Assembly: GCF_020171785.1 (NCBI RefSeq)
Contig: NZ_JAIVAE010000010.1
Location: forward strand, 62,001-126,000
Source of the DNA: Guptibacillus hwajinpoensis
GTDB taxonomy: Bacteria; Bacillota; Bacilli; Bacillales; Guptibacillaceae
Direction: 5' to 3'
Length of the DNA stretch: 64,000 nucleotides
Shown here in pieces: positions 7,160 to 43,561 of the stretch. Under the pieces are notes generated by a model that was not told the origin of the DNA, did no database searches, and was given only the letters and a program-made list of their open reading frames with translations. The translations under genes were made by a program, and so were the position numbers. Every line of letters starts with the position of its first letter. Within the stretch, counting starts at the first letter, position 1.

Positions 7160-7245
7160 GGAGCCTGGCAGTCTGGCAGCCATTCGCATGAATGCGGGCA
7201 GGCCCATAACTTTGCGTCCCTATTTTTCAATAGGTTTGCCTTTTT
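7160..7245 (-). promoter_or_regulatory. c-di-GMP-I (GEMM) riboswitch
   Basis: On the minus strand the region reads GGCAAACC, then a stem CCTATT-GAAA-AATAGG with a GNRA tetraloop, GGGACGCAAAG, TTATGGGCCTG, a second hairpin GCCCGCATTC/GCGAATGGC and TGCCAGACTGCC. The order AAACC / GAAA-capped P2 / GACGCAAAG / GGGCCT / ATGGC-TGCC is the conserved core of the class I c-di-GMP aptamer. Downstream CAGGCTCC followed by TTTTTT can pair with GGGCCTG of the aptamer (terminator-like), while CCAGGCTC/GAGCCCTGG forms an alternative hairpin at 7144-7168. Expression-platform logic (ON or OFF) is inference. Confidence 0.88.
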
Positions 7246-7354
7246 CAGTTTTATCTTCCAACTACTATTATTATCGGTAGTGAGATCGTGAGAGTTTAGC
7301 TAAATTTTATCGCATAATAAATCATACTGTGCCGCTAATTCTTCACGCTATTTC

Positions 7355-9674: not shown

Positions 9675-11036
9675 GTGAAGAAAAAAATGAACATGAAAAA
9701 AGCATTTAAAAAATTAATGGTTCCGGCGCTAGGGCTAACCCTATTGTTTCCAACAGTTGCAGGTGCAGCTGACCCAGAACCAACAGTAAGCACACCAGCT
9801 GCCGATCTACGAGCCACACTTGATCAACTCTTATCCGAACATTTTGTACTAGCTGTTACGTCGATGACCAAATCGTATGATGGCACTGAAGATGCTGAAG
9901 TAGTGACAGAAGCACTCGATCAAAACGCAGCTGATATGACTCCAGCGATCGCATCTGTATATGGTGATGAAGCGGCGCAACAATTTGAGGACATTTTTAG
10001 AGGGCACAATGATTATTCTGCTGATTTCGTAAAAGCGGCAACTGAAGATGATGCAGAACTTCGAAAAGAAGCTGAGAAAGAAGTCGACGAATTTGTTGAT
10101 GAATTCTCTACTTTCCTTGATACTGCGACAGAGGGTAACCTGCCAAAAGAAGCAGCTGCAGATGTATTAGAAGTTCATGAAGATCAAGTACTAACTACCT
10201 TTGATGAGTATACAGAAGGAAATTATGAACAAGCTTATACAACATTCCGTGAAGGACATAAGCACATGTTTGCCATTAGTAAAGCATTATCGAGTGCGAT
10301 CGTAACGCAGATGCCTGATAAATTCGAAAACACGAAAGCTGATACACCAGCTGCCGATTTGCGATCAACGCTAAACAGTTTGGCGTCTGAACACTTTGCT
10401 CTTTCTTCCCTTGGTCTTGAAAAAGGGTATGATCAATCAGAAGACTATGACTTTGTGAACTGGGCAGAAGACAGAAACACCGCTGACTTTAAAGCTGCAA
10501 TCGGTTCTATCTACGGAGATGAGGGTGCAGCTCAGTTTGAAAAGATTTGGCAGGAAGATCACATCGCTGCACAAGCAGATCTTGTCGTTGCCTCTCTTTC
10601 TGAAGACGAAGAAGCGATGAAAATGGCAAAAGAACGTCTCTTAACAACTTTCCCTGAAAATTTCGGTACTTTCCTTGGAACAGCAACAGAAGAAAACCTT
10701 CCAACTGATGCTGCAACTAATGCTCTGAAGGCTCACGAAGAACAAGTTGTCGGATCATTTGAATCCTATATGTCTGGTGATTTTAAAGCATCCACAGATC
10801 AATTCCGTGAAGGGTACGCTTTCATGTTTGGTGTAGGTGAATCTCTAGGCGGTGCGATTGTGAAACAAATGCCAGATAAGTTCGCCGGAGAAGCCATGCC
10901 TGGTGATATGCCTAAGACAGGTATGGGTGGCGCGAGTGAGCAGTCATCTGACCTAACAGCTCTTTGGATTACAGTAGGTTCTCTTACGGTAGCTGGTTCA
11001 GCATTTGCTATTCGTAGAAAAGTCGTGAATCAGTAA
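9675..11036 (+). CDS. Secreted cell-wall protein with two copies of a helical repeat and an MPKTG sorting signal
   Basis: About 453 residues. Signal peptide (VPALGLTLLFPTVAGA then AADPE). Two homologous acidic repeats of about 180 residues follow, each opening TPAADLR-TL--L-SEHF and closing REG--FMF----L--AIV-QMPDKF. The C-terminus has MPKTG, a hydrophobic helix and RRKVVNQ, a sortase-type anchor with M in place of L. The repeat resembles a helical domain seen in proteins loosely annotated as copper amine oxidase-like in Bacillus, but there is no oxidase domain here; function unknown. Start is uncertain: GTG 9675 lies only a few bases after GAGGAG, so ATG 9687 or 9693 may be used. Confidence 0.8.
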   Translation: MKKKMNMKKAFKKLMVPALGLTLLFPTVAGAADPEPTVSTPAADLRATLDQLLSEHFVLAVTSMTKSYDGTEDAEVVTEALDQNAADMTPAIASVYGDEAAQQFEDIFRGHNDYSADFVKAATEDDAELRKEAEKEVDEFVDEFSTFLDTATEGNLPKEAAADVLEVHEDQVLTTFDEYTEGNYEQAYTTFREGHKHMFAISKALSSAIVTQMPDKFENTKADTPAADLRSTLNSLASEHFALSSLGLEKGYDQSEDYDFVNWAEDRNTADFKAAIGSIYGDEGAAQFEKIWQEDHIAAQADLVVASLSEDEEAMKMAKERLLTTFPENFGTFLGTATEENLPTDAATNALKAHEEQVVGSFESYMSGDFKASTDQFREGYAFMFGVGESLGGAIVKQMPDKFAGEAMPGDMPKTGMGGASEQSSDLTALWITVGSLTVAGSAFAIRRKVVNQ

Positions 11037-11075
11037 TCCACCTATCACATTACACCTAAAATAAATTGATACGTA

Positions 11076-11108
11076 AAAATCGCTTCTAACAATGTTAGAA
11101 GCGATTTT
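11076..11108. terminator. Bidirectional terminator
   Basis: A perfect 15-bp stem, AAAATCGCTTCTAAC (11076-11090) with GTTAGAAGCGATTTT (11094-11108), loop AAT. It ends both the wall-protein gene and the convergent peroxiredoxin gene. Confidence 0.93.
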
Positions 11109-11109
11109 G

Positions 11110-11670
11110 CTATGCGTTATGCTTTTTTAACACATCAATGACAGAGTCGATTTTTGCATGATCCTCCGGAGACTGATCAATATGATGCCAAATTAGCTTC
11201 CCGCTATCATCATAAATCCATGTCCCACCTTGTATATAAACATCTTGCGTTTTCATTGATTTAAGAACAAAGTCTTTCTTCTTTTGCTCTTTTGGGATAA
11301 ATCCATCCATCTTACGAGTGATGAATCCAATAGCGGCTTGTCCAAGTAATTTCCACTTCGGCATCGTATAGTGACCCATCCCTCGATAGGCTTCTCTTTT
11401 CGGATCACCCGCTATAACAAACGGAAACTCTCCAAAAGCTTCTGTGAACTGACAGATGTATTTGCCATTAGAAGGCGCAATCGCTATAATCTGAAAGCCT
11501 TCCTTCTCAATTTCATTTACGCGCTTACGCAACTGCGTAAGATAAGCTCGACAAACGGGTCAGCCAAGATGACGTACAAATACAACCATTGATTTCTTAT
11601 GGTGTATTAACTCTGCAAGTGTAACATTTTTACTTTCTGGAATTTCAAGTTGATAAGTTAATTGATCCAT
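11110..11670 (-). CDS. Predicted selenoprotein: peroxiredoxin-like (AhpC/TSA_2) protein with UxxC motif
   Basis: The frame starts at ATG 11670 (AAGGAGAGG nine bases ahead) and runs 186 residues to 11110, interrupted only by one TGA (11562-11560, codon 37). Around it the protein reads VVFVRHLG-U-PVCRAYLTQL. Homologous peroxiredoxin-like thioredoxin-fold proteins have RHxGCPxCR here, so TGA sits exactly on the first, catalytic Cys of CxxC. A stem-loop suited to a bacterial SECIS follows (11524-11541). Downstream sequence is intact (DPKREAYRGMGHYTMPKW, WIYDDSGKLIWHH). The protein should be a thiol/selenol peroxidase or disulfide reductase. Alternative: a nonsense mutation; then translation could restart at TTG near 11532. 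It is second in an operon with the DedA gene (19-bp gap). Confidence 0.8.
11524..11541 (-). promoter_or_regulatory. Candidate bacterial SECIS hairpin
   Basis: On the minus strand CTTACGC-AGTT-GCGTAAG forms a 7-bp perfect stem with a 4-base loop. The loop begins 25 bases after the TGA and has G as its second base. Bacterial SECIS elements lie immediately 3' of UGA with the loop roughly 16-37 bases away and a G in the first two loop positions, so the geometry fits. Confidence 0.65.
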
Positions 11671-11689
11671 AGTAACCTCTCCTTACTTA

Positions 11690-12301
11690 TCATGACGTTT
11701 GATCTGTGTTGATTACCTGTTTCTTGTGTTCAATTTTACACCTTTTTTGATAGTAGTGATACCCAATAAATCCAATAACTGCCACGATTATGATTAAGAA
11801 GACGTATTTCTGAATACTTCCAAAAATGGCTTGGACTGATTTGATATTTCCATTCTTTCCGATCCATAACATCGCAATTGTCCAAGGAAAGATGCCCACA
11901 AAGGTAAGGACGGCAAATACCCACGCCTTTACTTTACTCATACCAGATACGTAGGACACATAATTTCCAACACCAAGCGGGCGTGTAATCGCAATACTCC
12001 AAGATCCGCACTTTCTAAACCATCTTTGTACACGTTCTACTTTCTTCTTCTTTAGCTTTTTCTCTACTTTATCCTTAACTTTCAAACCGATCCCATAAGG
12101 AATAAAACTAAAAATGGTATAGATCACGCTTGTCAGAAATGCAAAACCGACCATTTCAATAATGGAAGCATTTAATAAGTAACCATACGTTAACGTCATC
12201 ATACCACCAGGAAAAGGTAAAGATGATGCTTCAAGCGCATTGCTAATTAAAAGACCCCAGATGCCAAGCTCTTTCAGGAATTGAATCAGAAATTCCAACA
12301 T
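11690..12301 (-). CDS. DedA/VTT-domain membrane protein
   Basis: A 203-residue protein with four to five hydrophobic segments (about 8-30, 45-68, 105-125, 130-150, 162-182). EASSLPFPGG and the later ITRPLGVGNYVSYVSGMSK are the paired motifs of the DedA/VTT (SNARE-associated) family, now linked to flipping of undecaprenyl phosphate and phospholipids. The C-terminus is a short basic cytosolic tail. It is transcribed first, followed at 19 bp by the predicted selenoprotein gene, suggesting a common operon. Start ATG 12301 with GGAGATCC upstream. Which DedA subgroup, and the lipid substrate, cannot be told. Confidence 0.85.
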   Translation of the reverse strand: MLEFLIQFLKELGIWGLLISNALEASSLPFPGGMMTLTYGYLLNASIIEMVGFAFLTSVIYTIFSFIPYGIGLKVKDKVEKKLKKKKVERVQRWFRKCGSWSIAITRPLGVGNYVSYVSGMSKVKAWVFAVLTFVGIFPWTIAMLWIGKNGNIKSVQAIFGSIQKYVFLIIIVAVIGFIGYHYYQKRCKIEHKKQVINTDQTS

Positions 12302-42719: not shown

Positions 42720-43214
42720 TTATAACATGGTTAAAATTTCTGCTAAGTTCTTACTTGTTCCTTTACGTTCCAATCGTTTTTGAGCTCGTTTTTGCGCCAG
42801 CACATTAAGTTGCCTCTCCCCTTCTGTTTCTGGTTCGATTCCAGGGACTTGCATCGGCTTTCCTTCAAGCAAAGCAACAAACGAAATAAAGCACGTAGCT
42901 GCTATACGATTTGCACCTGTCAATAAATGTTCAGCGGTTACTTTCACGAAAACTTCCATAGAACTTTTTCCTGTCCAAATGACAAATGCTTCATAATGAA
43001 TCGAATCTTCTTCAGTAATAGGGTGCAAAAACTCAACTGTATCCATCGATACCGTGACGCATTCTAAACGAGAATGCCTTGTTGCTGCGATTGATGCTAA
43101 CATATCCATGTCCGCAAGTAATTTCCCTCCAAATAACGTTCCGTGACTGTTCAAGTCCGGTGGAAAAATACGACTGCTCTTATAGACTCTTGATTCGCTT
43201 ACTGTCTTTTTCAT
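42720..43214 (-). CDS. Acyl-CoA thioesterase, hotdog fold (YkhA-like)
   Basis: 164 residues. DLNSHGTLFGGKLLADMDMLASIAA is the active-site region of the hexameric cytosolic acyl-CoA hydrolases (YciA/YkhA group): the catalytic Asp is in DMDMLA and the N in LNSHGTLFGG. The enzyme releases free fatty acid and CoA. The ATG at 43214 (GGAGAGAGG upstream) is the start; the reading upstream to 43289 crosses a terminator hairpin and is not coding. The gene's leader contains a cobalamin riboswitch and attenuator, an unexpected control for a thioesterase. It is the only gene on this transcript. Confidence 0.9.
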   Translation of the reverse strand: MKKTVSESRVYKSSRIFPPDLNSHGTLFGGKLLADMDMLASIAATRHSRLECVTVSMDTVEFLHPITEEDSIHYEAFVIWTGKSSMEVFVKVTAEHLLTGANRIAATCFISFVALLEGKPMQVPGIEPETEGERQLNVLAQKRAQKRLERKGTSKNLAEILTML

Positions 43215-43236
43215 ATCCTCTCTCCTTTTCCAAACA

Positions 43237-43273
43237 ATAAAAAAATGCATCCTCTTCACATAAGAGCATGCAT
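43237..43273 (-). terminator. Riboswitch-associated attenuator/terminator
   Basis: On the minus strand TGCATGCTCTT and AAGAGGATGCA form an 11-bp stem with one mismatch, followed by TTTTTTT. It lies between the cobalamin aptamer and the thioesterase start, as expected for a transcription-control riboswitch. Confidence 0.75.
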
Positions 43274-43334
43274 AACGAATAGGCATCATCTAGCCTTCTC
43301 GATACACCCCCCTATCATCCGTAGGTCAATCAGT

Positions 43335-43505
43335 GCTTTAGAAAAGGCAGGTCTCCTGACTTGAAGCTTCTTTGAACGAATACTCCTTCCCTATCATTGA
43401 TAAGTGGAATAACGCATCGTTTATACTTCTTACAGTGGCGGGACCGCATTGGATTTACACCAATTTCCCTATTATGTACTGGATTCAGCACACCTTTTCC
43501 ATATT
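43335..43505 (-). promoter_or_regulatory. Cobalamin (adenosylcobalamin/B12) riboswitch
   Basis: Minus strand, in order: GGTGTGCTGAATCC, AATAGGGAA, TTGGTGTAAATCCAA, the invariant GCGGTCCCGCCACTGT, a variable hairpin arm, GGGAAGGAGT and the 3' B12 box AAGTCAGGAGACCTGCC. Order, spacing and conserved boxes are those of the cobalamin riboswitch family. In Bacillus this RNA normally precedes genes of B12 uptake, synthesis or B12-dependent metabolism. Here the next gene is an acyl-CoA thioesterase. Confidence 0.93.
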
Positions 43506-43561
43506 ATTCAATTGTACTTCTTCATTCTTTACTTCTTTCTTTACAAAGTCAAGACACGTCC

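What the first reader, a model, noticed from the sequence alone, without database searches (positions are those of the whole stretch)
11110..11670. Predicted selenoprotein: peroxiredoxin-like UxxC protein in a Bacillaceae genome
Seen: one in-frame TGA (11562-11560) in an otherwise intact 186-codon frame with a good start and ribosome-binding site; it replaces exactly the first Cys of the RHxGCPxCR motif, giving UPVC. A 7-bp hairpin with an AGTT loop begins 18 bases after TGA, loop at 25 bases. Known: peroxiredoxin-like proteins with UxxC occur among bacterial selenoproteins, and bSECIS elements have this geometry. Selenoproteins are rare in Bacillaceae. An ordinary gene finder truncates the gene to 140 codons and loses the active site.
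Basis: partly seen in the sequence, partly recalled or inferred. Interest (0 to 1): 0.92.

Follow-up and report, generated by a model that had tools for sequence, protein, structure and literature searches.

The report
Hidden selenium redox enzyme in Bacillales
A gene that looks broken by a stop codon almost certainly makes an intact redox enzyme with selenium at its active site, and many related bacteria carry the same gene, which standard gene calling is likely to cut short.

Summary
The finding holds. The 186-codon frame at 11670-11110 (-) has one internal TGA (11562-11560) at the first redox position of a UxxC motif in a peroxiredoxin-like protein. The same genome encodes tRNA-Sec, SelA, SelB and SelD; selD itself has an in-frame TGA. 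All 55 orthologs read in the order, plus 3 distant loci of the phylum, carry TGA at that codon; no Cys form met the ortholog cut-offs. All 52 order-sample genomes with the gene have a full SelA, against 87 of 247 without it. The hairpin 18 nt after TGA is present in 58 of 58, with invariant AGUU loop and two covarying pairs; its codons are locked. The model resembles human prostamide/PGF synthase, with U37/C40 at that enzyme's CxxC. Likely role: UxxC peroxide or disulfide oxidoreductase; substrate unknown; no selenium measured. New member of a known kind.

The parts
11110..11670 (-). Sec-encoding CDS, 186 codons, peroxiredoxin-like UxxC redox protein (stop TAG 11112-11110)
   Evidence: frame and translation with TGA=U; Pfam AhpC-TSA_2, AhpC-TSA and Redoxin all over cut-off; 55 of 55 order orthologs TGA-interrupted at the same codon
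11560..11562 (-). in-frame TGA, Sec37, first residue of UxxC (UPVC; partner Cys40 at 11553-11551)
   Evidence: conserved in 58 of 58 loci
11524..11541 (-). bSECIS-like hairpin, 7-bp stem, AGUU loop at 11534-11531
   Evidence: covariation and invariance on 58 sequences; synonymous lock
11679..11684 (-). ribosome-binding site AAGGAG, 8 nt before ATG
   Evidence: read; similar GGAG-type sites before most relatives' starts
11690..12301 (-). upstream DedA-like membrane protein gene (VTT domain), 19 nt before the CDS; possible co-transcription here, but not a conserved partner: next to the gene in 9 of 14 genus loci (own included) and in none of 19 loci tested outside the genus
11075..11108 (-). terminator-like inverted repeat followed by a T run after the CDS
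   Evidence: read by eye; not scanned

Best explanation
The gene encodes a selenoprotein. Shown by sequence: the internal UGA, the conserved hairpin 18 nt downstream, the complete Sec machinery, and coding conservation on both sides of the UGA. Inferred: SelB with Sec-tRNA(Sec) binds the hairpin in the mRNA and inserts selenocysteine at codon 37. The product is a thioredoxin-fold, peroxiredoxin-like redox enzyme with Sec just before the active-site helix. Sec37 attacks the oxidised substrate (hydroperoxide or disulfide), Cys40 resolves it as a selenenylsulfide, and a thioredoxin- or bacillithiol-type reductant recycles it. Where Cys40 is replaced (5 of 58 loci), an external thiol would have to resolve. 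Odds by step: selenoprotein about 0.97; UxxC redox enzyme about 0.85; peroxide rather than disulfide as main substrate about 0.5.
For: Own genome: tRNA-Sec 60.2 bits against gathering 47, ARAGORN anticodon tca; selA 564 bits (cut-off 268), selB 359 (242), selD 380 (125); selD with GGUGCKIG. Conservation: 18 orthologs among 61 relatives searched, all with TGA, including all 14 genus genomes searched; 52 of 299 order genomes have an ortholog, all with TGA, all 52 with full SelA against 87 of 247 without the gene. Hairpin: AGTT loop 58 of 58; 99.0% of cells paired; 33 cells changed on both sides against 3.4 in shuffles, covariation score 0.281 against 0.162, both 0 of 500 shuffles; RNAalifold finds the same helix unprompted. 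Codon lock: Gln46 CAG 58 of 58 (50% elsewhere in the same genes), Leu47 TTG 58 of 58 (15%), Arg48 CGT/CGC 58 of 58 (41%), residue 45 codon ends in G 58 of 58. Third-position excess on both sides of TGA: differences by codon position 278/132/718 upstream, 613/154/3069 downstream. Fold: pLDDT 86.3, pTM 0.84; best PDB match human PGF synthase C44S/C47S 9usa, TM 0.69/0.78; the profile alignment puts U37 and C40 on that enzyme's CxxC.
Against: No protein or selenium measurement. No Cys ortholog was found at the cut-offs used, so the classical Sec/Cys exchange argument is missing. Single-sequence hairpin energy is ordinary. Two of the five covariation measures are not convincing: pairs with a change on both sides 2 (reached by 32 of 500 shuffles) and further pair types 7 (106 of 500). 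The segment before the TGA changes faster at protein level (399 of 868 codon differences nonsynonymous, against 697 of 3279 after it). One of the 52 order orthologs (G185) stops early and looks damaged. The hairpin overlaps a conserved peptide, so part of its conservation is protein-level. The sequences are related, so Fisher and shuffle numbers overstate significance.
Confidence: 0.96

Rival explanations
1. Decaying pseudogene or sequencing error: the TGA is a nonsense mutation and only a 140-codon fragment or nothing is made.
For: A mechanical ORF finder sees only a 140-codon fragment; one distant ortholog (G185) does look damaged.
Against: TGA at the same codon in 55 of 55 order orthologs from 20 genera; third-position excess on both sides of the TGA.
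Confidence: 0.01
2. Recoding of UGA to something other than Sec (read-through, or Trp by near-cognate decoding), independent of the Sec machinery.
For: Read-through would also keep the frame open.
Against: UGA lies at a redox Cys position; the hairpin is conserved and covaries; all 52 carriers have SelA; TGA ends the upstream gene in the ordinary way.
Confidence: 0.02
3. It is a selenoprotein, but mainly a hydroperoxide reductase working with Sec alone (1-Sec), Cys40 being auxiliary. (A variant of the best explanation, not exclusive of it.)
For: Cys40 is replaced in 5 of 58 loci (UxxY in 4 of one genus, UxxG in 1) while the TGA is kept; fold neighbours include PrxQ/Bcp and 1-Cys Prx.
Against: Cys at +3 in 53 of 58; the closest solved relative has a CxxC; in classical Prx the peroxidatic Cys falls at the +3 position, not at U (recalled).
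Confidence: 0.35

Closest known systems
NCBIfam NF040769, SelL-related redox protein
   Same: Match over profile positions 5-172 of 173; all 18 aligned orthologs hit it at E at most 0.001.
   Different: 93.4 bits for the window protein, below the curated cut-off of 120, so formally outside.
Prx-like thiol:disulfide oxidoreductase selenoproteins (pfam00578, UxxC/UxxU) and the AhpC/TSA family selenoprotein (PF13911 or cd02970, UxxS) in the 2022 and 2026 selenoproteome reviews (PMC9312934, PMC13188914; passages seen)
   Same: Same Pfam domains; Sec at the first position of a UxxC-type motif.
   Different: The PF13911 entry there is UxxS, this one UxxC; no Bacillales member is named in the passages seen. 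Their representative sequences could not be compared directly, so this clade may prove to be part of the UxxC/UxxU family. A 2006 survey (PMC1794560, passages) already counted 3 selenoproteins in Bacillales; I did not see which.
Human prostamide/prostaglandin F synthase (PDB 9us9/9usa; the name PRXL2B is recalled)
   Same: Best solved relative by sequence profile (E 5.1e-7) and by fold; its CxxC aligns with U37xxC40.
   Different: 17% identity in the structural alignment; uses Cys; no evidence for the same substrate.
PrxQ/Bcp peroxiredoxins
   Same: Same fold.
   Different: Their TxxC motif (recalled) corresponds here to UxxC, so the reactive residue is at the other end of the motif.

Membership tests
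Bacterial selenoproteins | in-frame UGA conserved at a redox position | tested here: met
   58 of 58 loci
Bacterial selenoproteins | bSECIS hairpin just downstream of UGA with G in the apical loop (geometry rule recalled) | tested here: met
   AGUU loop, stem 18 nt after UGA, covariation; single-sequence energy ordinary
Bacterial selenoproteins | tRNA-Sec, SelA, SelB, SelD in the same genome | tested here: met
Bacterial selenoproteins | Cys-containing homolog aligning at the UGA | tested here: inconclusive
   no Cys ortholog at the cut-offs used in 299 order and 398 phylum genomes; distant Cys relatives among solved structures align there
Bacterial selenoproteins | selenium actually present in the protein | not testable with these tools
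   needs 75Se labelling or mass spectrometry
NF040769 SelL-related redox protein | score over curated cut-off 120 bits | tested here: not met
   93.4 bits; 83.8 in the genome search
Pfam AhpC-TSA_2 (PF13911) / AhpC-TSA (PF00578) | score over gathering cut-off | tested here: met
   47.7 against 27 and 45.7 against 26 bits
Classical peroxiredoxin | PxxxTxxC peroxidatic motif (recalled) | tested here: not met
   the Thr position is Sec; the Cys position (C40) is replaced in 5 of 58 loci
Prostamide/PGF synthase-like (PRXL2, name recalled) | CxxC (here UxxC) before the active-site helix, same fold | tested here: met
Prostamide/PGF synthase-like (PRXL2, name recalled) | prostamide/PGH2 reductase activity | not testable with these tools
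   biochemistry needed

The most novel reading that the evidence does not exclude
A Sec-obligate enzyme family spread through an order of Bacilli: never found with Cys among the orthologs sampled, with a hairpin tip AGUU frozen in all 58 loci (3 of them outside the order) and with the same letters at the tip of the selD hairpin in 13 of 14 selD genes read; one lineage dropped the resolving Cys while keeping Sec, so selenium chemistry itself, not the UxxC pair, is what selection retains.
Probability: 0.4. Interest if true: 0.6.

Novelty: new member of a known kind. Interest (0 to 1): 0.45.

Why it matters
The gene is TGA-interrupted in 52 of 299 sampled genomes of the order, so an ordinary gene call would lose the first residues and the active site (shown by ORF listing for the window copy only). 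A full SelA in 139 of 299 genomes means that Sec use in this order deserves a proper census; the 2006 survey listed only 3 Bacillales selenoproteins (PMC1794560, passages). The 58 hairpins with real covariation help define what this SelB type recognises, and natural UxxC, UxxY and UxxG forms let one ask why Sec is kept.

Tried and rejected
Pseudogene, sequencing error and non-Sec read-through: rejected as above. Single-sequence folding as evidence for the hairpin: uninformative. Further selenoproteins: PF00384 gives 3 matches in the own genome, none with a stop inside, so a Sec formate dehydrogenase is not seen; the bSECIS pattern gave no second candidate among the 30 of 41 matches examined; other Sec families were not searched, so the selenoproteome is incomplete. 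The plasmid search gave one partial hit (33% identity over 49% of the query). In one search, 7 of the 25 genomes with a match had only weak ones (E 4e-5 or weaker), most without a stop; I took these for general thioredoxin-fold relatives and did not use them. A SelL-versus-SelA distance comparison worked for 4 of 12 intended genomes (my SelA extraction failed for 8) and is not used. One search read minus-strand loci in the wrong orientation; one search replaces it. In one search the codon counts use 11 of 14 genus members; G008, G003 and G011 were left out for a different N-terminal length or indels; the printed label says 38-43 and 50-183, the code counted 50-183 only. A second structural aligner was not available.

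Literature: 10 searches. None of the papers listed describes this protein in Bacillales by title or abstract start, but searches matched more papers than were listed, and the library holds open-licence papers only. Seen as passages from term searches: PMC13188914, PMC9312934, PMC5029168, PMC2398784, PMC5322559, PMC1794560, PMC7996765. PMC12013277, PMC5330540 and PMC4561486 were searched for terms and held none of them. No paper was read whole. Recalled, from no call: the PRXL2 name, the bSECIS spacing rule, the placing of PxxxTxxC on CxxC, the bacillithiol/thioredoxin recycling.

Full report
Observation. The minus-strand frame 11670-11110 is open for 186 codons apart from one TGA at 11562-11560, codon 37. 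It starts at ATG 8 nt after AAGGAG and follows a DedA-like gene whose own stop is TGA. Pfam finds AhpC-TSA_2, AhpC-TSA and Redoxin, all over cut-off. TGA takes the first position of RHLG-U-PVCR. A mechanical ORF list starts the gene at an internal TTG and keeps 140 codons.

Machinery. The assembly (4,237,080 bases, 35 contigs) has one place with tRNA-Sec above the Rfam gathering score (1 of 22 matches; ARAGORN tRNA-Sec, anticodon tca), and next to it selB, selD and selA, each over its NCBIfam equivalog cut-off (selD scanned as the part after its TGA). selD has an in-frame TGA in GGUGCKIG. In 15 sel regions taken from relatives, a selD motif with Sec was found in 13; two (L139, L149) showed none.

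Conservation. Among 61 relatives searched, 18 have an ortholog (E 1.8e-40 or better), all with one TGA, including all 14 genus genomes searched; 7 more have only weak matches. In the 18, the TGA is the same codon and both flanks align. In 299 genomes drawn evenly from the order, 52 (20 of 116 genera) have an ortholog at E at most 1e-15, all with TGA; three rows list another stop too: G017 and G153 a TAA, which appears to lie outside the coding frame I read, and G185 a TAG after which the protein is cut short, so that copy looks damaged. With G001, G005 and G008 this makes 55 orthologs in the order. In 398 genomes of the phylum, 4 match at E at most 1e-10: the own genome, one more of the order, and G534 and G666, which hold three loci, also with TGA. 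No Cys version reached these cut-offs. Named records with the gene include Pseudalkalibacillus hwajinpoensis, P. spartinae, Alkalihalobacillus macyae and Bacillus sp. (6 loci; titles are the records' own).

Co-occurrence. A full SelA (E at most 1e-100, my threshold; the tool's tally at E at most 0.001, which includes weak matches, is 178, and 164 over the family cut-off) is in 139 of 299 order genomes: 52 of 52 with the gene and 87 of 247 without. Fisher p is 9e-21 but ignores kinship. Sec machinery is thus common in this order, and this protein cannot be its only reason to exist. The 2006 survey counted 3 selenoproteins in 3 families for Bacillales (PMC1794560, passages).

Hairpin. From 55 order orthologs and 3 phylum loci I took the 60 bases from TGA (58 sequences, 55 distinct). 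Each has the AGTT loop at the same distance, and the three pairs nearest the loop are all but fixed (one U-G in 174 cells). Of seven pairs, two covary (C-G, U-A, U-G, G-C; and A-U, G-U, G-C). Measures: 99.0% of cells paired, 33 cells changed on both sides against 3.4 (sd 4.5), covariation score 0.281 against 0.162, each reached by 0 of 500 shuffles; but the number of pairs with such a change (2) was reached by 32 and the number of further pair types (7) by 106 of 500; sliding the partner destroys the signal. RNAalifold finds the same helix. Synonymous choice is locked: CAG 58 of 58, TTG 58 of 58, CGT or CGC 58 of 58, NNG at residue 45 58 of 58, against 50, 15 and 41% (29% ACG for Thr, 21% GCG for Ala) elsewhere in the same genes. 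Among 11 of 14 genus members the six codons never differ (0 of 330), against 3279 of 7370 in codons 50-183. The 14 selD genes read carry AGTT (13) or GGTT (1) at the tip of a comparable hairpin; the minimum-energy fold shows that hairpin in 7 of 14, the others fold otherwise. A common SelB specificity is inference. The single-sequence fold energy of the window hairpin is ordinary.

Structure and mechanism. An AlphaFold2 model from the 18-row alignment (Cys standing for Sec) has pLDDT 86.3 and pTM 0.84; residues about 101-120 are poor. U37 precedes helix 38-49. Foldseek's best solved match is human prostamide/PGF synthase, then AhpC2 and PrxQ; the profile search of PDB sequences also ranks PGF synthase first and aligns the UxxC with its CxxC. 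Cys at +3 is present in 53 of 58 loci; four loci of one genus have Tyr and one phylum locus Gly there. I therefore favour a Sec nucleophile with Cys40 as usual but dispensable resolver. The substrate is not determined.

Neighbourhood. DedA lies next to the gene in 9 of 14 genus loci (own included) and the convergent exported-protein gene in 12 of 14; neither was found in 19 loci tested outside the genus (short flanks). There is thus no conserved partner that would hint at the substrate.

Family filing. NF040769 (SelL-related redox protein) is hit along its length but below cut-off (93.4 against 120), so I do not file it there; it is a near relative. Reviews list UxxC/UxxU Prx-like and UxxS AhpC-TSA_2 selenoproteins (PMC13188914, PMC9312934, passages). 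Sec at a Prx-like UxxC is thus a known kind. I found no description of this Bacillales clade in the listings of ten searches (see Tried and rejected for their limits).

Verdict. A genuine predicted selenoprotein, about 0.96, with measurement still lacking.

Noticed in passing
L010 5880-8281 (own genome C2), between selB and selD: A PhnD/PhnE/PhnC-type ABC transporter sits inside the sel cluster; the binding protein also hits TIGR04553 'putative selenate ABC transporter' (185.7 bits, below its cut-off of 250). Besides the own cluster, 6 of 15 sel regions of relatives (L136, L137, L138, L142, L147, L150) have it between selB and selD: a candidate selenium importer.
   Followed up: partly
L010 8316-9370 (-): selD is itself a Sec gene (GGUGCKIG), with two consecutive hairpins after the TGA in the predicted fold.
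   Followed up: partly
L080, L081, L082, L085: Four orthologs of one genus read UPYY: Sec kept, resolving Cys replaced by Tyr.
   Followed up: partly
L139 (G014) and L149 (G033): sel regions with selA and selB but no selD found nearby, in genomes without an ortholog of this protein; what their Sec system serves is open.
   Followed up: no
window 7164-7250 (-): c-di-GMP-I riboswitch, 80.3 bits, at the start of an ORF for a secreted-looking protein of about 300 aa without a Pfam match.
   Followed up: no
window 43329-43512 (-): Cobalamin riboswitch, 122.3 bits; the next ORF of 120 aa or more on that strand (42720-43289) looks like an acyl-CoA thioesterase rather than a B12 gene (by eye).
   Followed up: no
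window 9675-11036 (+): 453-aa exported-looking protein with two internal repeats and an MPKTG-like C-terminal motif (by eye), no Pfam match; convergent with the selenoprotein gene in 12 of 14 genus loci.
   Followed up: partly
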